From Medicago truncatula (Eukaryota > Streptophyta > Magnoliopsida > Fabales > Fabaceae), in assembly GCF_003473485.1 (NCBI RefSeq), contig NC_053048.1:52015755-52079754 (forward strand): DNA of 64,000 nucleotides, given 5' to 3'. Shown in pieces: positions 158 to 57,478 of this stretch. Position 1 is the first letter of the stretch. Each line of letters starts with the position of its first letter. A program made the position numbers and the translations under genes. Under the pieces are notes generated by a model that was not told the DNA's origin, did not search any database, and saw only the letters and a program-made list of their open reading frames with translations.

Positions 158-304
158 CACTCTCCGGTAACTTATATAAGCAAAAATCTATTTTCTAGAT
201 ACATTCAATTAATGATGTGTGTGACATATAATAAAGACCACATACATCATCAATTGAATGTGTCTAAAAAGTACATTTTTGCTTATATTAGTGACCGAAG
301 GGTG
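158..304. repeat. Stowaway-type MITE
   Basis: Terminal inverted repeats begin CACTCTCCGGTAACTTATAT and, on the other strand, CACCCTTCGGTCACTAATAT. TA lies on each side (156-157 and 305-306), as for Tc1/mariner MITEs. The short open frame across it is a by-product of the arms. Confidence 0.8.
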
Positions 305-8570: not shown

Positions 8571-10256
8571 TCACTCAACCCAACTAATTGCCGTCTGTTT
8601 TTTTATTCCTCGCTCCTTCATTGTGTCCCTCAATTCATTTACACTGCTCCATACTCCTTTCTCACCTTGGATTTTTGAAAGTACCGAGTAAGAAACAGGA
8701 TGACTGCTCTCCAATCTGCGAATCCTCTCAGCAGCATACTCTCCAAGTTCCAAATTTGAATGCAGGCCACAAGCTGCAAGTAATGCTCCCCACAACACAA
8801 CATCAGGCTCAAATGGCATATTCTTGATTAAATTTTCTGCTTCATCAAATCTCCCTGCTCTTCCATACAGGTCCACCATGCAACTGTAATGCTCCATCTC
8901 TGCTTGTATTCCATACTTTGTTAACATATCCGTGAAGTGCTTTTCACCCTCTTCAACAAGACCAGCATGCACGCATGCCGACAACACATTCACAAATGTA
9001 ACTTCATCAGGGGTACCCACAACTTTCATCCTATCAAACTCCTCGAGTGCTCGTGTAGCTAGTCCATGGCTTGCATAACCTCCAATTATTGCATTCCAAG
9101 AAACCAAATTCTTATCCCTAATGGACTCAAAAACACCAAATGCTGCATCCATATCCCCACATTTTGCATACATATCAACGAGCGAGGTCAGCCAGATAAC
9201 ATCATTTGCTATGCCAGACTTGATGATACAGGGGTGAAGCTGCAGCCCCATTATAAGAGAGGAAGAACCTGCACATGCATCCAATACACTTGAAAATGTG
9301 AAATGATTGGGACGAGTTTCAGTCTTAAACATAAGAACAAAAAGCTTCAATGCATCCACAAATCTCTTGTTTTGCACATACCCACTAATCATTGCTGTCC
9401 AAGAAACCACATTCCTCTCACTCATATCATCAAAAACAGACCGCGCTTTGTTAACCTGCTTGTTCTTGACATAACCATTCACCAAAGTAGTCCAAGAAAT
9501 TATGTTTCTTTGAGGCATTTGATCAAAGGCAGTTTGAGCATCAACGAATTTTCCCAATTCCATATAACTAGAAACCAAAGCATTCCAAGATGTAACATCT
9601 TTCATCGATATATCATTGAACGCTCGACCTAAAGCTTCTTCCTCCTTTAAACCAGCATAAGCTCTGATCAAAGACGACCCAACAAACACATTCAAGTAGT
9701 GTCCCAAATGAAATGCCAAAGCATGAACTTGACGAACCAAAACATCCAACTCGGTACTAATAACCGCTCTGAGCAACGTCGAGATGGTGTAGTCATTGGG
9801 CACTACACCAGCTCTTCCCATTTGCAAGAAACATCTGTAGAGTCCCTCTGAGTTTCTAGTTCTCTGAAAACCAGAGAGCATGATGTTCCACGAAACTGCG
9901 TCTTTCAGAGGCATTTTATCAAACAGGTCGTGAACGGGTCCAATTTGATTGTGTTGCAAGTAAGCAGTCATAACCATGTTCCAGGAAACAATGTTGCATG
10001 ATAAAAGGTTTTCATCCAACAGTTTATGAGCTTGTTTAACGTTGTTGTTGTCAATGTAAGTGTTGATCATGTAGTTAAGTTGTGGTGTTGTGATTGTAAC
10101 AGTACACATGTTGCGGATCCACAATCTCTTCAGTACATGCATCCTAAGAATAAAATATTGGAAACACGCATGATACAACAAAAATATTGTTTGTTGTTTA
10201 AAATTGATCCTTGTAATCGCTAATCTTGGCAATTTACGCTTGCATTGTTTAATCAT
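8571..10256 (-). CDS. pentatricopeptide repeat protein, PLS class, E subgroup
   Basis: This is an uninterrupted frame of up to 561 codons. PPR proteins of this class bind organellar RNA one repeat per base, mostly in mitochondria or plastids. Visible repeats carry the motifs NIVSWNMVMTAY, DAVSWNIMLSGF, DVTSWNALVSSY, NIISWTTLVNGYV, NVVSWTAMISGYV and NLVSWNAIIGGYA, with L/S spacers between. They are followed by GVVEEGEKHF-like and PDVVLWGALLAACG segments and an E-type end, KERGIKKQTAISWVE. There is no DYW domain. The first 22 codons lie inside a MITE arm (10194-10256), so the native start is more likely Met39 (10142) or Met50 (10109); the residues after these are short and basic enough for a targeting sequence. 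A partial copy lies at 5605-5766. The RNA target cannot be read from the sequence by eye. Confidence 0.9.
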   Translation of the reverse strand: MIKQCKRKLPRLAITRINFKQQTIFLLYHACFQYFILRMHVLKRLWIRNMCTVTITTPQLNYMINTYIDNNNVKQAHKLLDENLLSCNIVSWNMVMTAYLQHNQIGPVHDLFDKMPLKDAVSWNIMLSGFQRTRNSEGLYRCFLQMGRAGVVPNDYTISTLLRAVISTELDVLVRQVHALAFHLGHYLNVFVGSSLIRAYAGLKEEEALGRAFNDISMKDVTSWNALVSSYMELGKFVDAQTAFDQMPQRNIISWTTLVNGYVKNKQVNKARSVFDDMSERNVVSWTAMISGYVQNKRFVDALKLFVLMFKTETRPNHFTFSSVLDACAGSSSLIMGLQLHPCIIKSGIANDVIWLTSLVDMYAKCGDMDAAFGVFESIRDKNLVSWNAIIGGYASHGLATRALEEFDRMKVVGTPDEVTFVNVLSACVHAGLVEEGEKHFTDMLTKYGIQAEMEHYSCMVDLYGRAGRFDEAENLIKNMPFEPDVVLWGALLAACGLHSNLELGEYAAERIRRLESSHPVSYSVLSKIQGEKGVWSSVNELRDTMKERGIKKQTAISWVE

Positions 10257-26608: not shown

Positions 26609-27000
26609 TTCTTTTGACACTTTTGTAAGAATAATTGGACGTGTACGCAATCATGGACATGTCTCGTTTAGAATCATAAATTTTGGTACTCGATCACAAT
26701 TATTTTTCATAATATACACATATACAGAAAAGATATTCTAATACACATTTGAGGAACAAATCACAAAAGAAGCTCCACCAACTGCCTGCTATATCTCCTC
26801 ACAGCACAGAGACCGAATTATGAAAGTGCAAGATACAGGGATGTGTGGTCTCATGTACTCACTGTTCCGTCGAGCATGAGGTACAATAGCTTTTTAACCA
26901 CTGAGGTCCACAGTAGTCTAATGGAAACAGATACACATAGTAGAATTCAATCCAATTTATGAGTAACAACCCGATTTGAATAAATGTAAAGCAAATCCAA

Positions 27001-27168
27001 CTATAAAAGCATACCCCACTTATTAACATAATTTAGAGACAGTAATAAACAAGCCTTCATTAATAGATATATAGAAGGATTTATTTCATAAGATGCTTTC
27101 GGAGCCCAGAGATTACCAATGGCTTCAACAATTGCAACTTTCAAATCTCCGTTCTTTATGAAAATCAT
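27001..27168 (-). other. 55-codon open frame at the end of the snoRNA unit
   Basis: It starts MIFIKNGDLKVAIVEAIGNL and runs to a TAG at 27001-27003. The first 26 residues look protein-like, the rest less so. It could be an exon of the snoRNA host transcript or chance. I recognise no family. Confidence 0.2.
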
Positions 27169-27447
27169 AAGGCTTCACACTTCGATATTGTGATATCCAA
27201 CTAGACAAACAATGTTTAAGAGACAAATTAGCATATTAATGGTAACAAATGGCCTCAGAGGTAGTGACAATTAGCATTTATCAATCACACAGCAGATCTG
27301 GTAATACGTGCAAGTAATACATCATTGGCCATCCGTACTATTTATCTTAAAAATGAATGTAAATCAATGTTTTAAATTTGAAAATCAAAGTTGGAAACAC
27401 AATCATAAGAAAAATACTATGAAAATCCAACGCAATTATAATACAAT

Positions 27448-27534
27448 ATGCATCAGAGAGATTCCCATCGACAAATCATCATGTTCTCTAATTAGGAGAT
27501 CTGATGTCCCTGTCTAATTTATCGTCACTTGCAA
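27448..27534 (-). ncRNA. C/D-box snoRNA, copy 1 of a 25S rRNA guide family
   Basis: On the minus strand a C box GTGACGA (27522-27528, one change from consensus) is followed by TAGACAGGGACAT and later GGGAATCTCT, then the D box CTGA (27453-27456). Short TGCA pairing encloses it. The two guides are antisense to 25S rRNA GAGATTCCCA and TGTCCCTGTCTA as I recall that sequence. It is a paralogue of the copies at 27939 and 28136. Such RNAs direct 2'-O-methylation in the nucleolus. Confidence 0.75.
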
Positions 27535-27704
27535 GTTGCATAACTATGATGAAACCAAATCAAGTAAAACAACTAAATTTCCAAGTAAACAAAACAGCAA
27601 CACCAACTCTACGTAAACCTATTGTATCACAACAAAACAGCAACAATTACAAAAACCATCTTTATCACTAATAAAAATATATACTTCAACCAAATTCAAC
27701 ACAT

Positions 27705-27840
27705 TCAGGATCAATTGTCTCAGTCTATGGAAATCTCAAAAAAGACGCGGATAGGTATGACAATTAATTTAAACATTATCAACAATAAGATCAGTACCAA
27801 CATACAAAGTACAATACTGATTGTGTTTGTTGACAACGGG
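27705..27840 (-). ncRNA. possible H/ACA-type snoRNA
   Basis: Two hairpins lie in tandem on the minus strand. Hairpin 1 (27776-27836) has a lower stem TTGTCAACA/TGTTGATAA, an internal loop AACACA/CTTAT, and an upper stem ATCAGTA/TACTGAT, which is the pocket shape of H/ACA RNAs. AAATTA (27765-27770) fits the H box ANANNA. Hairpin 2 (27713-27765) has ATTGTC/GACAAT and an internal loop. The only nearby ACA lies in the last stem, not three bases from an end, which weakens the call. Confidence 0.35.
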
Positions 27841-27938
27841 AAAATCAATGGAACATCTAAACATTATCAACACTCAAAATATTATTTCATCTCTTCTTTT
27901 TTCAATGGAGAAAATCTTAATCCTATTAATTGATAGAA

Positions 27939-28023
27939 ACGCATCAGAGATTTTCCCATTAGACAAATCAACATTCTCCCTTCGGAGTGCTGAGTCCCTG
28001 TCTATCTTGTCATCATCTGCGCA
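27939..28023 (-). ncRNA. C/D-box snoRNA, copy 2 of the 25S guide family
   Basis: C box ATGATGA (28010-28016), D box CTGA (27944-27947), and a terminal stem GCGCA/TGCGT with one wobble. The first guide (TAGACAGGGAC) is kept. The D-box guide reads ATGGGAAAATCT, which no longer fits GAGATTCCCA well, so this copy may have lost or changed one target. Confidence 0.75.
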
Positions 28024-28135
28024 TAAGGGTTAGGACCAACATATATGTTACTATTTAACAAGTGCATAGAGCTTTACATTTCAAACAAAATAATCACCAT
28101 AAAAGATTAGACCCAAAATATGTTTTTAATAAATT

Positions 28136-28221
28136 GTGCATCAGAGAGATTCCCACAGACAAATCAGCATTTTCTCTAATTAGGAGATCTGATGTCCCTG
28201 TCTAGTTTGTCATCATTTGCA
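28136..28221 (-). ncRNA. C/D-box snoRNA, copy 3 of the 25S guide family
   Basis: C box ATGATGA (28210-28216) and D box CTGA (28141-28144). The two guides, TAGACAGGGACA and GTGGGAATCTC, are antisense to TGTCCCTGTCTA and GAGATTCCCAC, which follow each other directly in plant 25S rRNA as I remember it. By the D+5 rule the D guide would place a methyl on the second A of GAGA. The guides make this the clearest member of the three. Confidence 0.8.
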
Positions 28222-28406
28222 ACATATAAAACCATGGTAAAAACAACAATATCGTTCCAAAACTAACAACAATTAACAAAAATAATTCTAATCTAATGAA
28301 ACAAAATTAAAATCTCTTTTTAAAAAAATAATTATGTTCTTCCAAAAGATTTGTATCAACGCATCAGATTGAAAAAGTAATTGTAAATTGAAATGAAAAT
28401 AAAATG

Positions 28407-28472
28407 GTGCCTCAGAGTAAAATTGTTTCATAGAAATTAATCTCAAAGTATATTTAACACCATCATGGGCAC
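28407..28472 (-). ncRNA. short C/D-box snoRNA candidate
   Basis: The terminal stem is GTGCC/GGCAC. A C-box-like ATGATGG (28460-28466) and D box CTGA (28412-28415) complete a 66-nt RNA. The guide before the D box reads AACAATTTTACT; I could not match it to an rRNA position. Its place between two other snoRNAs of the same strand supports it. Confidence 0.6.
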
Positions 28473-28633
28473 AGAGATAAACAAACGAAATTGACTTTGA
28501 ATAAAATAAAACATCATTAAATATGAAACAGTTGAAATAAGGTAAAGCATAGTTAAAATCGAATAGAAGTAATCCATAAAAAAACCATGTGATATTTGGA
28601 CATATGAAAAATCAATTTGGACACAAAAAATGA

Positions 28634-28716
28634 GAGGTCTCAGGTTATTTAAACACATCAAAATCTAAAAAAGATTATCAGACAATGTAGGCAAATAAAA
28701 ACACATCACAGACCTC
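28634..28716 (-). ncRNA. U34: U34 C/D-box snoRNA (snR62/SNORD34 family)
   Basis: This 83-nt RNA is closed by a perfect stem, GAGGTC/GACCTC. The boxes are in order: C GTGATGT (28703-28709), D' CTGA (after the guide), C' TTGATGT, D CTGA (28640-28643). The guide TTTGCCTACATTGT before D' matches the human U34 guide (ACCTACATTGT) and is antisense to 25S ACAATGTAGGCAA. U34 directs 2'-O-methylation of a uridine in that helix; the D+5 rule points to the U of ACAAU. Confidence 0.85.
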
Positions 28717-28779
28717 ACATTTTAACAAGATAAAACTATCAAACATCAAGAAAAGCATAGTAAAATTAAGAGGGAAAAA

Positions 28780-28905
28780 AGAGTTGACTCAGTGGTGGCT
28801 AGATTAATTTAGGTTCGATTCTGCCTGCAATTGACCTCACCTTAAAATCAGAAGAGGGAGCTTTGTATCCTCACGGTCAACAATTTTTAATCCCCAACAA
28901 AATTG
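28780..28905 (+). repeat. SINE-like fragment
   Basis: GACTCAGTGGTGGCTAGAT followed by GGTTCGATTCTGCCTG resembles the A and B boxes of a tRNA-derived SINE on the plus strand, opposite to the snoRNA unit. Confidence 0.35.
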
Positions 28906-28934
28906 AAAATATATATATATATATAAATGAGATA

Positions 28935-29045
28935 GATCACTCAGTTCAGCGGGGTTATCGACACGCAAAGCAATCTCTCGAAAGAGAAGAAAGCACTGCA
29001 CTGCGGTCTGTTGAGCTTGAATTTTATGGAGTCATCATCGTGATC
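28935..29045 (-). ncRNA. long C/D-box snoRNA candidate (111 nt)
   Basis: The terminal stem GATCAC/GTGATC is perfect. C box ATGATGA is at 29032-29038 and D box CTGA at 28941-28944, each directly next to the stem. At 111 nt it is longer than its neighbours. The sequence before the D box (TCGATAACCCCGCTGAA) gives no rRNA target that I recognise, so it may be an orphan. It is the RNA nearest the promoter. Confidence 0.7.
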
Positions 29046-29198
29046 TCATACTATGCAGTATGCACAACAAATATCGAAATCCAGAAAAACAAATAACAAA
29101 TAACAAAGGAAAACAAAATCAGCTGCAATAGAAAAAATTGAAAATGGGAGAGGAGGGACTCCATTGGGTTTTGTTTCTCCACAGCCGCATCTGATCTG

Positions 29199-29318
29199 AA
29201 TTTATAGGAAGAGTTAATTAGGGTTTTTGATAACACGCTGTCGTTTTGAAAGGCAACTGTGAAAGCCCGATAAAGATATGGTCAAAAGCCCAAATCACCT
29301 AAAACCACTCTCAGCCCA
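29199..29318 (-). promoter_or_regulatory. promoter of the snoRNA cluster
   Basis: Reading on the minus strand, in order: two site II elements TGGGCT (29313-29318 and 29287-29292), a telo-box AAACCCTAA (about 29217-29225), and a TATA box TATAAA (29201-29206). Site II plus telo-box is the known signature of plant ribosomal-protein and snoRNA gene promoters, bound by TCP and Pur-alpha type factors. Transcription would start near 29170 and run through all the snoRNAs above. Confidence 0.7.
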
Positions 29319-29329
29319 ACACTTGATTG

Positions 29330-30016
29330 AGAATAGTGTGTTATTTTTTATTTTTTGTATTTTAACCGATTAAATAAGTTTTTTTTATCTCAATAAATAA
29401 ATTAATTTTTGTTTTAATCCTTGTAAAATATATGTCCTTATAGTATATTTCACCATAGAGATTTAGTCTTCGTTAAAGTCAAATTTGTTTAACCATTCAT
29501 AAACTTTTAAATTCTCGAATAATCTTTTTACACATATTTAGAACATAATAAAAAGTTCATCCGTAAAAAATAAGCTCAAAATATTATTTATAGGCCAAAA
29601 TTTTCATTATTTTTATCTTAAATTTTTAAATGTTTTAAAAATTCATATTTAATTCATTTTATTTTTTAAATATTCTAATTTTTTGTGGAAGAACTTTTTA
29701 CAAGGTTCTAAATAAGATTGCAAAATGTAAACAAAAAAATAAAATTGCAAAGAGACATTCAAAAATTAATTTTTTTAAGGATAATTAAACAAATTTAAAT
29801 TTAATAAGGACTAAAATTTTATGCTGAAAATTTAATTGAGTCCAATCTATTATTTGTTAAAGACTTTATTTTAAATGAACATGACCTTTTTAGACACTTA
29901 GTATGGACTATTAGCATGTTTATACATCTATTTTGTGATTGTGTTAAGTGGTTCTAGCTTAACAAAGAGTAATGATATTTGTACCCTTTCAATTTTCCAA
30001 CACTCACTTAACATGT
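29330..30016. other. intergenic, decayed TIR element
   Basis: 29360-29870 has worn arms resembling the GGTTAAATATG family (ATCTCAATAAATAAATTAAT and ATTTAGTCTTCGTTAAAG words). No gene is seen. Confidence 0.35.
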
Positions 30017-33058: not shown

Positions 33059-34484
33059 TAGAATTGATTCTATTTTTTTTTTGTAGAGGGCAAAAACCAA
33101 AGAAAAAGAAAACTAAAAAATTAAACGGATGTTCCTGGGCATGTAAGCTCCGGAAATATCATCAAACAAAAGACTCTGAAATTCATTAGGGGGAGTCTCC
33201 AGAATATGAAAATCTAGAAAATCCATCGAAATGCTGAAATTAGCAAGCCAATCTGCACTTATGTTGTCTTCAAGCCAAATATGGGTAATTTTGACAGTCC
33301 AACTCAAACTCAAAAGTTGTCGAATACGCGTGACTAAAGTAGGAGTCGTTCCACTAAAATTGCAATTTTCAGTAATCATGTCGACCAAGATATTTGAGTC
33401 ACTCTCCACTATAAGATAAGTGGTATTTTCTCTCCATGCCATGTCCAAACCTAGGTACATGCCCCACATTTCAGCATGAAAAGCATCACACATTTCAATC
33501 TTCTTGAAGTAGCCTTTGATCCATCTGCCATCAGAGTCTCGAAGAAGCCCTCCACACCCTGCAAGAGTACCATATCCCTTCCAAGCACCATCACAATTAA
33601 GCTTAACCCAACCAATCGGAGGTCGCATCCAACCGATGTATATAATTTCCTTTTGATGCGAATTTTTATGCACCAACTTCGTATTGTCTTCTATCTCTCT
33701 AGTAAACTTTTGAATTACCAGTGTTGGATTGCTTGGTCTTTGAAATCCTATTTCAAAAATAGAATTGTTTCGCCAATTCCACAAATACCAACATGTTATC
33801 ATGAAAGTAGTCTGCCAAGTAGCAGGATTATCTCCAATCCCTTTTTTATTAAGGTTGTTAAAAATCCACTCCCTGCAATCAAAAGAGAAGAAATTAGTTA
33901 TGTAATTATACGGGACAAGTCTGAGCCATACCTGAGTGGCGTGCACACAATCACGAAGGATATGAATGACTATTTCATCCTCTCTCGCACAACAAGGACA
34001 AGTAGGGGAGATACCAACCCCCCCACTTGCTACGACGATAATCGGTAAGGATCCTTCCATGAGCGACCAACCAAATAAAGGTTTGGATACGACGGGGACC
34101 CTTCCAGTTCCATAAGGTCTTCCAATCACCTCCCACAACAAAAGAGGTCTCTTGCTGCAAATTGTAAGCACTTTGGACAGTAAACTCGAGAGTGTCAATT
34201 CCTCCCCATCCTATAGTATATGGGCCATCAAAATTAGAAGGGGTTGGGAGGGCTAAAATATGGTTAACAATGTCCACATGCAAGTTATCCATCAAAAAAA
34301 TTAGGTCCCAGACACCAGAAGTATTAATAGCATCCCTAACTGAAATAGTGGTATTCACATAAGATTGAATAGAAGAAGAGAAGAGAGAAGTATTATTCGA
34401 GACCCACTTATCGATCCAAAAGTTAGTACTTCTCCCATCCCCAATTTGCCAAATAACATGACACTTAAAATAGAATTAATTTTA
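33059..34484 (-). mobile_element. 5'-truncated LINE (zf-RVT and RNase H)
   Basis: The body runs from the poly-A end (poly-T at 33073-33082) to about 34470. The minus-strand frame holds a zinc-knuckle CPCCAREDEIVIHILRDC, then a plant RNase H domain with VKLNCDGAWKGYG, GCGGLLRDSDGRW, FHAEMWGMYLGL, VESDSN and a final HIWLEDNISADWLA. An upstream piece (34016-34358) reads WKTLWNWKGPRRIQTFIWL in another frame, so one shift lies near 34010-34030. A 14-bp imperfect duplication flanks it: TAGAATTGATTCTA (33059-33072) and TAGAATTAATTTTA (34471-34484). The reverse transcriptase core is missing. Confidence 0.8.
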
Positions 34485-35474: not shown

Positions 35475-35591
35475 AACACCTTCACCCTCCACATTTCATC
35501 TCACCAATTTATTTTCAGCAATCTCTCTTAAGCATTCTCGCAAATACTTCTCTCAGAATTTTAATTTCTTTCACAAAAGCAACTTAAAAAT

Positions 35592-37327
35592 ATGGCACCA
35601 GAGCTTGTTCCAACCGCTGCAAAATCAGTTACCGGATTCACGAAGCCAGTGACGATACCAAAACGTGCGTATGTAACGTTTCTTGCCGGTAACGGTGATT
35701 ACGTGAAAGGTGTAATAGGTTTGGCGAAAGGTTTGCGGAAGGTGATGACGGCGTATCCGCTGGTTGTGGCGGTGCTTCCAGATGTACCGGAGGAACACCG
35801 TGAGATGTTGGAAGCTCAGGGATGTATTGTCCGTGAGATTGAACCGGTTAACCCACCCGAAAATCAGACTCAGTTTGCTATGGCGTATTACGTCATCAAT
35901 TATTCCAAACTCCGTATATGGGAGGTACACTCTACAAGACACTATGCTATTTTCGTAGTCTGTTATTTCTACACGTCATCAATCATTTATTTCTGTTATT
36001 GTTTCTTTACACGTGGAATTTGTGAGTCGGTTAGTTTCTTACACGTGGACACTTGAGATCCATACATATGACGTGTCACTTGTATTTCTAGTTCTAGATA
36101 AAAATACCAAAACTTAATTTTACCTAATAAAAATAATAACTTTGACTAAGTGAGGAATTTCGAAGGGACTAATAACTTGTGTTCTAAGTAGGTAAATTAT
36201 TTTGGACTTAGATCTATGGTGATGTTGTTGACCATGGCATGGGTTGATACTACAATTTTTCTAATTAAAAAAAAAAAGATATAATAATTTTTCTTCTCAA
36301 AACTGACTTGCGTTGGTTTGATGCATTGCTGACTTGGGACCTTACGGTGTGTATCTGGTTTGATTCTTAAACCCACCAATTGTTTGATTTTTTTGGCTTC
36401 TTAAGAGAAAATGGAATCAAGTTAGTGTATCATTTATAATGAGTTAAAATTAACCAAGAGACTAATGATTCATAAAATAAATCTGTGCACCATAAAACTA
36501 GGAAGGAAAGTGTACTTATTTGAGCTATATTTATTATGTTACAGTTTGTGGAATACAGCAAGATGATATACTTGGACGGAGACATTCAAGTTTATGAAAA
36601 CATAGACCATCTCTTTGATCTACCAGATGGTCATTTCTACGCTGTTATGGATTGTTTTTGCGAGAGAACTTGGAGTCACACACCACAATACAAAATCGGT
36701 TATTGTCAACAATGTCCAGAAAAAGTTCATTGGCCAAAGGAAATGGGTCAACCTCCTTCACTTTACTTCAATGCTGGCATGTTCCTGTTTGAGCCAAGCA
36801 TTGATACTTACCACGATCTTTTGAAGACACTTAAAGTTACTCCTCCTACTCCTTTTGCTGAACAAGATTTCTTGAATATGTATTTCAAGGATATTTATAA
36901 GCCAATCCCATTTGTTTACAATCTTGTTCTTGCTATGTTATGGCGTCACCCTGAAAATGTTGAGCTTCATAAAGTCAAGGTTGTTCACTATTGTGCAGCG
37001 GTAAGTAATGCAATGCATATTTTGATTTATTGATTGTGTGAATAAATTTGAAGTGCATAAATTTTTACAGTGACTTGATTTTTCGATTTTGTTCAGGGAT
37101 CAAAGCCTTGGAGATACACAGGGAAGGAAGAAAACATGCAAAGGGAGGATATAAGAATGCTAGTCAAGAAATGGTGGGATATTTACAATGATTCATCTCT
37201 TGATTACAACAAGAATTTGAGTGGAAGTGGTGAAGTACAAACGAATGGTTTTGAAATTGAGCCATTCGTACAAGCATTGTCTGAGGTAGGTCGTGTTCAA
37301 TATGTCACAGCACCTTCAGCAGCTTAA
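35592..37327 (+). CDS. GolS: galactinol synthase (UDP-galactose:myo-inositol galactosyltransferase)
   Basis: There are three exons, 35592-35924, 36545-37000 and 37097-37327, with GT-AG introns in phase 0. They give 339 residues; Arabidopsis GolS1 has 344. The enzyme makes galactinol from UDP-galactose and myo-inositol, the first committed step of raffinose-family sugars, in the cytosol. It is a GT8 glycosyltransferase: RAYVTFLAGNGDYVKG at residues 26-41 starts the fold, YLDGDIQVYENIDHLF carries the Mn-binding DxD (Asp122, Asp124), and the protein ends with APSAA, the pentapeptide typical of GolS. FNAGMFLFEPS and FAEQDFLNMYF are further family blocks. Upstream lie a heat-shock element, a G-box and a TATA box, so a stress-induced isoform is likely. 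It is the only copy in the window. Confidence 0.96.
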
Positions 37328-57100: not shown

Positions 57101-57478
57101 GCTTAATTACTCTTTTGGTCCCTTAACTTATTTTTTGGTTTCGTTTTGATCCCTTAACTATTAAAAGTTTCGTTTTGGTCCCTTAACTTATTTTTTGGTT
57201 TCATTTTGGTCCCTTAACTCTTCTTCCGTCAACCACTTTGATCCTTTATGTTAGAATGAATCTATTAGAGTTAAGGACCAAAACGAAATCAAAAAATAAG
57301 TTAAGTGACCAAAACGAAACCAAAAAATAAATTAAGGGACCAAAACGAAACTTTTAATAGTTAAGGGACCAAAACAAAACCAAAAAATAAGTTAAGGGAC
57401 CAAAACGAAACTTTTAATAGTTAAGGGATCAAAACAAAACCAAAAAATAAGTTAAGGGATCAAAAGAGTAATTAAGCC
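57101..57478. repeat. TIR MITE (GGCTTAATTACTCTTTTGGT) with internal tandem units
   Basis: The arms GGCTTAATTACTCTTTTGGT and ACCAAAAGAGTAATTAAGCC-type ends are inverted. The interior repeats the 35-bp unit around CCAAAAAATAAGTTAAGGGA several times. Confidence 0.85.

What the first reader, a model, noticed from the sequence alone, without database searches (positions are those of the whole stretch)
27448..29318. Unannotated snoRNA cluster with its own promoter
Six minus-strand C/D-box RNAs (27448, 27939, 28136, 28407, 28634, 28935) lie within 1.6 kb. They have matching C/D boxes and closing stems, and follow a telo-box, site II and TATA promoter at 29199-29318. The boxes, stems and promoter motifs are seen directly; the link between this promoter type and plant snoRNA units is established. 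No protein gene explains this region.
Basis: partly seen in the sequence, partly recalled or inferred. Interest (0 to 1): 0.85.

Follow-up and report, generated by a model that had tools for sequence, protein, structure and literature searches.

The report
Ordinary plant snoRNA gene cluster
This is a run of eight small RNA genes behind one promoter, of the usual plant kind, whose RNAs tell a methylating enzyme which letters of ribosomal RNA to mark; it looks real but ordinary.

Summary
Rfam covariance models find eight, not six, box C/D snoRNAs on the minus strand at 27251-29045: Z107/R87, R30/Z108, SNORD34 (U34), Z267, three copies of R44/J54, and a borderline snoR122 match. No other snoRNA family reaches its cut-off in the 64 kb. 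TATA, telo-box and two site II elements lie 156-273 bases ahead of the first snoRNA. Seven of the eight carry antisense elements selecting rRNA positions mapped as 2'-O-methylated in Arabidopsis: 9 guide-site pairs, 7 distinct sites, against a mean of 0.05 pairs in shuffles. The rRNA letters used were recalled, not fetched. R44, R30 and U34 have the published guide's name. Two details go slightly beyond routine: R44 copy 2 (27938) has altered guides, and the 27251 gene pairs with 18S A468 and, over 12 bp, with U168, which is not mapped in Arabidopsis, tomato or tobacco. Verdict: new member of a well-known kind; expression untested; interest low.

The parts
29287..29318 (-). two site II elements (TGGGCY) at 29313-29318 and 29287-29292
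   Evidence: exact motif scan; motif definition from PMC4660826
29218..29226 (-). telo-box (AAACCCTAA)
   Evidence: exact motif scan
29201..29206 (-). TATA box (TATAAA)
   Evidence: exact motif scan
28935..29045 (-). C/D snoRNA Z107/R87; D guide to 25S G2392 (9 bp); D' guide to 25S G2410 (13 bp) if a degenerate box is accepted; the sites of Arabidopsis SnoR29
   Evidence: Rfam RF00360 105.2 bits; guides; Table 1 of PMC8053127. With the nearest one-mismatch D' box the target would be G2415, not a mapped site
28785..28884 (-).
   Evidence: Rfam RF00046 73.0 bits; guide, where unmapped 25S G2466 (same box, one mismatch) and G2715 scored slightly higher
28633..28717 (-). C/D snoRNA U34 (SNORD34); D' guide to 25S U1892 (13 bp)
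   Evidence: Rfam RF00147 42.7 bits; guide
28404..28475 (-). C/D snoRNA Z267; D' guide to 18S U604 (10 bp), the site guided by SnoR115 in Arabidopsis
   Evidence: Rfam RF00344 61.9 bits; guide. The scan did not report this guide
28135..28223 (-). C/D snoRNA R44/J54 copy 1; dual guide, D to 25S A2327 (11 bp) and D' to 25S C2338 (12 bp)
   Evidence: Rfam RF00357 79.9 bits; guides
27938..28023 (-). C/D snoRNA R44/J54 copy 2, with both guide elements altered (D guide no longer matches A2327; one base missing before the D' box)
   Evidence: Rfam RF00357 69.0 bits; alignment; no guide to a mapped site or among the best listed
27447..27535 (-). C/D snoRNA R44/J54 copy 3; D to 25S A2327 (10 bp), D' to 25S C2338 (12 bp)
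   Evidence: Rfam RF00357 80.3 bits; guides
27251..27330 (-).
   Evidence: Rfam RF02407 36.3 bits, cut-off 36; SNORD70 below its cut-off, 35.3 against 50; guides

Best explanation
A plant polycistronic box C/D snoRNA gene. RNA polymerase II starts near the TATA box at 29.2 kb under telo-box/site II control and makes one minus-strand precursor through at least 27.25 kb. The precursor is cut and trimmed into eight snoRNAs, which join fibrillarin-containing particles and direct 2'-O-methylation of the rRNA base that pairs five bases upstream of box D or D': 25S G2392, G2410, U1892, A2327 and C2338, and 18S G392, U604 and A468 (Arabidopsis numbers). Shown here: snoRNA identity, order, strand, promoter motifs, and complementarity to sites known in Arabidopsis. 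Inferred: one transcript, processing, expression, and methylation in this species.
For: Eight Rfam C/D matches on one strand and no other snoRNA match above cut-off in the window. A box-and-stem scan without Rfam finds all eight among its 16 minus-strand candidates. 7 of 8 molecules carry a guide of 9 bp or more to a mapped Arabidopsis site, 9 guide-site pairs; 2000 dinucleotide-shuffled sets gave a mean of 0.05 and never more than 1; 11 of 1452 other 85-base pieces of the window did so. The published guide has the same name for A2327 and C2338 (SnoR44), G392 (SnoR30) and U1892 (U34). SnoR29.2 is reported to use a degenerate D' box for G2410, as Z107/R87 would. TeloSII motifs are in place. An R44 gene followed by a guide for the SnoR17 site recalls rice cluster 53, snoR44-snoR17-snoR147a.
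Against: No transcript data. PMC8053127 reports that 24 of 26 Arabidopsis snoRNA genes once predicted from promoter features were not expressed (passage), so promoter motifs are weak support alone. R44 copy 2 has no guide to a mapped site. Some elements pair as well or better with unmapped positions (R30, Z107/R87). The published link of SnoR30 with 25S U803 was not found here. The 27251 gene passes its Rfam cut-off by 0.3 bits. A host transcript is not excluded.
Confidence: 0.95

Rival explanations
1. The snoRNAs sit in one or more introns of a host gene, coding or non-coding, that the TeloSII promoter drives, and are released by splicing rather than from a dedicated precursor.
For: Most plant host genes of intronic snoRNAs encode ribosomal or ribosome-biogenesis proteins, whose promoters share the same motifs. 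A short frame (29054-29281) spans the TATA box and what follows.
Against: 0 of the 7 frames of 70 codons or more that overlap the cluster, and 0 of 5 scanned (of 6 listed) minus-strand frames between 21.0 and 27.2 kb, has a Pfam match. Short exons would be missed.
Confidence: 0.12
2. A decayed, silent copy of a snoRNA cluster whose active copy lies elsewhere in the genome.
For: R44 copy 2 has lost its guide matches. Most plant snoRNA families have several paralogues (PMC5122169, passage). Copies elsewhere could not be counted.
Against: The other seven keep boxes, stems and guides to mapped sites, and the promoter motifs are intact.
Confidence: 0.05
3. Chance C/D-like motifs in AT-rich sequence.
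For: C and D boxes are short; 7 plus-strand candidates and several minus-strand ones without Rfam support also pass a box-and-stem scan.
Against: Rfam E-values down to 1.5e-22 and the guide test against shuffles.
Confidence: 0.001

Closest known systems
Plant polycistronic (TeloSII) C/D snoRNA genes, as in Arabidopsis and rice (PMC4660826, passages)
   Same: Tandem C/D snoRNAs on one strand after telo-box, site II and TATA.
   Different: No difference seen in layout; transcription not shown here.
Rice cluster 53, snoR44-snoR17-snoR147a (PMC5122169, passage)
   Same: An R44 copy is followed by a guide for 18S A468, the site assigned to SnoR17 in Arabidopsis.
   Different: Here three R44 copies and four other families come first; none of the eight matched an Rfam family named snoR147 or guides its Arabidopsis site 25S C1479. 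Homology of the 27251 gene to snoR17 was not tested by sequence.
Rfam families RF00360, RF00046, RF00147, RF00344, RF00357
   Same: Each matched above its gathering score over the full model.
   Different: R44 copy 2 departs from RF00357 in both guide elements.
Rfam snoR122 (RF02407) and SNORD70 (RF00575)
   Same: The 27251 gene shares the D' antisense stretch with snoR122 and the D antisense stretch with SNORD70 (alignments).
   Different: It barely reaches snoR122 (36.3 against 36) and is below SNORD70 (35.3 against 50); it combines one guide of each.

Membership tests
Box C/D snoRNA | C box, D box and terminal stem | tested here: met
   Rfam full-length matches for 8 of 8; box-and-stem scan finds all 8 with at most one C-box mismatch and stems of 4-7 pairs, G-U allowed
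Box C/D snoRNA | antisense element upstream of D or D' that places a known methylated rRNA base at position 5 | tested here: met
   7 of 8; R44 copy 2 fails. Sites from Table 1 of PMC8053127; rRNA letters recalled
Box C/D snoRNA | stable nucleolar RNA bound by fibrillarin | not testable with these tools
   no expression data
Plant TeloSII polycistronic snoRNA gene | telo-box and site II upstream of a TATA box | tested here: met
   definition
Plant TeloSII polycistronic snoRNA gene | several snoRNAs in tandem on one strand close downstream | tested here: met
   eight within 1.8 kb; the first begins about 156 bases after the TATA box
Plant TeloSII polycistronic snoRNA gene | single Pol II precursor | not testable with these tools
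   no transcript data
Intronic snoRNA cluster | host gene exons flanking the cluster | tested here: inconclusive
   no Pfam match in 7 of 7 frames that overlap the cluster, nor in 5 scanned of 6 minus-strand frames at 21.0-27.2 kb; short exons would be missed
snoR17 (18S A468 guide) | D guide to 18S A468 | tested here: met
   13 bp; Arabidopsis assignment
snoR17 (18S A468 guide) | sequence homology to plant snoR17 | not tested
   no snoR17 sequence was at hand; none of the Rfam families listed bears that name

The most novel reading that the evidence does not exclude
Local duplication in this cluster is producing new guide specificities. R44 copy 2 has moved its D' target (to 25S C2339, if the box aligned with the other copies is used) and lost its D target. 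The 27251 gene is a dual 18S guide whose D' element methylates U168, a position not mapped in Arabidopsis, tomato or tobacco, giving this lineage one or two rRNA methylations of its own.
Probability: 0.12. Interest if true: 0.35.

Novelty: new member of a known kind. Interest (0 to 1): 0.15.

Why it matters
It gives an annotation of eight snoRNA genes and their predicted rRNA sites in what looks like a legume genome. The testable extras are whether 18S U168 is methylated in this plant and whether the altered R44 copy still guides anything. Neither would change how plant snoRNA genes are understood.

Tried and rejected
The genome of the window is not held, so copies elsewhere could not be counted. 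Annotation status of the locus was not checked. A blastn search of 26900-29400 against the plasmid collection gave no match. A scan of viral contigs for a eukaryotic 25S motif gave nothing; the same scan of genome contigs gave two eukaryotic LSU rRNA stretches in bacterial bins, L001 and L002; their organisms were not identified. They served only as a partial check of the recalled 25S: of five target stretches, two are exact in L001 and two in L002; the other best matches differ by 1 to 3 bases, and some of these lie at places that are not the counterpart.

The one plus-strand C/D-like candidate with a guide of 10 bp or more (26817-26904, 11 bp to 18S U622) is not a mapped site and has no Rfam match; I take it for chance. 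A looser search for second targets, of which the best six per element were printed, gave nothing convincing: for R30 and U34 none of the six is a mapped site (U34's best, 25S position 34, is a long duplex with G-U pairs that starts at position 4); for Z267 one is mapped, 25S G2918, but with a mismatch and two G-U pairs, one of them at position 5. For R44 copy 2 the best D-guide target, 18S G961, has a mismatch at position 5 and is rejected; its D' element gives 11 bp to C2339 with the aligned but poor box, or 10 bp to U2341 with another box.

Literature: in the papers listed (lists capped at 10 to 20 rows, of up to 321 papers) no title or abstract start describes this locus or a Medicago snoRNA survey; the full lists were not seen. 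Two Arabidopsis cluster papers are not held. What I saw of papers: PMC8053127, one section and passages; PMC4660826, 12 of 35 passages; PMC5122169, passages; PMC11542601, passages including the 18S rows of Table 2; PMC7464842, two passages; PMC8351944, term searches with one reference-list passage; PMC7762058, a term search with none; the rest, listings only.

Full report
What was checked. Rfam release 15 covariance models, run over the whole 64-kb window, give 11 matches above gathering scores. Eight are C/D snoRNAs, all on the minus strand at 27251-29045; the other three are miRNA families. The six listed genes are confirmed. Two more were missed: R30/Z108 at 28785-28884 and a borderline snoR122 match at 27251-27330. 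In order of transcription the genes are Z107/R87, R30, U34 (SNORD34), Z267, R44/J54 copies 1, 2 and 3, and the 27251 gene. A box-and-stem scan that does not use Rfam finds all eight, with stems of 4-7 pairs, among 16 minus-strand candidates in the window; the plus strand has 7 candidates.

Promoter. On the minus strand there is TATAAA at 29201-29206, a telo-box at 29218-29226, and site II elements at 29287-29292 and 29313-29318. This is the published TeloSII arrangement of plant snoRNA genes (PMC4660826, passages). A telo-box with two site II elements within 110 bp arose in 7 of 200 random 64-kb sequences, so the evidence is the placement just ahead of the first snoRNA. A caution: 24 of 26 Arabidopsis snoRNA genes predicted from promoter features were not expressed in a later study (PMC8053127, passage). 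Here the snoRNAs stand on Rfam and the guides, not on the promoter.

Guides. I compared the antisense stretches with Arabidopsis rRNA. All 23 sites listed from 2114 to 2494 fit with a shift of one base, which I allowed for over indices 1900-2560; that leaves one misfit, G3292. The check covers those positions, not every letter. With this, U34 selects 25S U1892 (13 bp), R44 copies 1 and 3 select 25S A2327 (11 and 10 bp) and C2338 (12 bp each), R30 selects 18S G392 (9 bp), Z267 selects 18S U604 (10 bp), Z107/R87 selects 25S G2392 (9 bp), and the 27251 gene selects 18S A468 (13 bp). If a degenerate D' box of Z107/R87 is accepted it also selects 25S G2410 with 13 bp; the nearest one-mismatch box would give G2415, which is not mapped. 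A degenerate D' box is reported for Arabidopsis SnoR29.2 at G2410 (PMC8053127). The guide assigned in Arabidopsis bears the same name for R44, R30 and U34; for the other sites it is SnoR115, SnoR29 and SnoR17. R30 also has two unmapped matches that score slightly higher than G392, and the published link of SnoR30 with 25S U803 was not found.

Chance. With strict pairing of 9 bp or more and boxes with at most one mismatch, against 18S and 25S, 7 of 8 molecules hit mapped sites: 9 guide-site pairs, 7 distinct sites. In 2000 shuffled sets the mean was 0.05 and the largest value 1. Outside the cluster, 11 of 1452 pieces of 85 bases did so. In the looser scan, the eight gave 11 duplexes of score 10 or more, 7 at mapped sites; 193 random pieces of the window gave 31, of which 3 at mapped sites.

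Departures. R44 copy 2 (27938-28023) keeps boxes and stem, but its D guide has lost the match to A2327 and one base is missing before the D' box, so that 11 bp now point at C2339, or 10 bp at U2341 with another box. It finds no mapped site. The 27251 gene joins a D guide like that of SNORD70 with a D' stretch shared with Rfam snoR122 (alignments). That D' stretch pairs over 12 bp with 18S at U168. U168 is absent from the Arabidopsis map and from the Arabidopsis, tomato and tobacco 18S rows of Table 2 of PMC11542601, while Arabidopsis SnoR122 is called an orphan. I recall, from no call, that the human counterpart of U168 is methylated. The same Table 2 pairs A468 with human Am512.

Setting. 0 of the 7 stop-to-stop frames of 70 codons or more that overlap 27251-29318 has a Pfam match. 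Of 20 frames of the window scanned in all, 3 have matches: a reverse-transcriptase-like fragment at 33116-34210 (minus), a glycosyltransferase family 8 domain at 35565-36053 (plus), and pentatricopeptide repeats at 8574-10256 (minus). I infer a legume, probably Medicago, because the window's miRNA matches are MIR2655 and MIR2593 (that these names come from Medicago is recalled); this was not proven.

Judgement. The locus is a plant polycistronic C/D snoRNA gene of the ordinary kind. Expression, processing and methylation are inferred. Interest is low.

Noticed in passing
57150-57428, both strands: MIR2655 precursor family matches on both strands (201 and 186 bits), as an inverted-repeat element would give; perhaps a transposon-like palindrome rather than a miRNA gene (inference).
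   Followed up: no
174-288, minus strand: MIR2593 precursor family match, 103 bits against a cut-off of 96.2.
   Followed up: no
35565-36053, plus strand: Frame with a glycosyltransferase family 8 domain; it looks like galactinol synthase (recalled).
   Followed up: no
33116-34210, minus strand: Reverse-transcriptase-like domain (RVT_3), with a zf-RVT match just below its cut-off (25.6 against 27.5).
   Followed up: no
8574-10256, minus strand: Open frame of 561 codons with pentatricopeptide repeats and a C-terminal E motif.
   Followed up: no
L001, L002: Two contigs in bacterial genome bins (JABSRU010000113.1, BQJP01000067.1) hold eukaryotic LSU rRNA, so the bins look contaminated.
   Followed up: no
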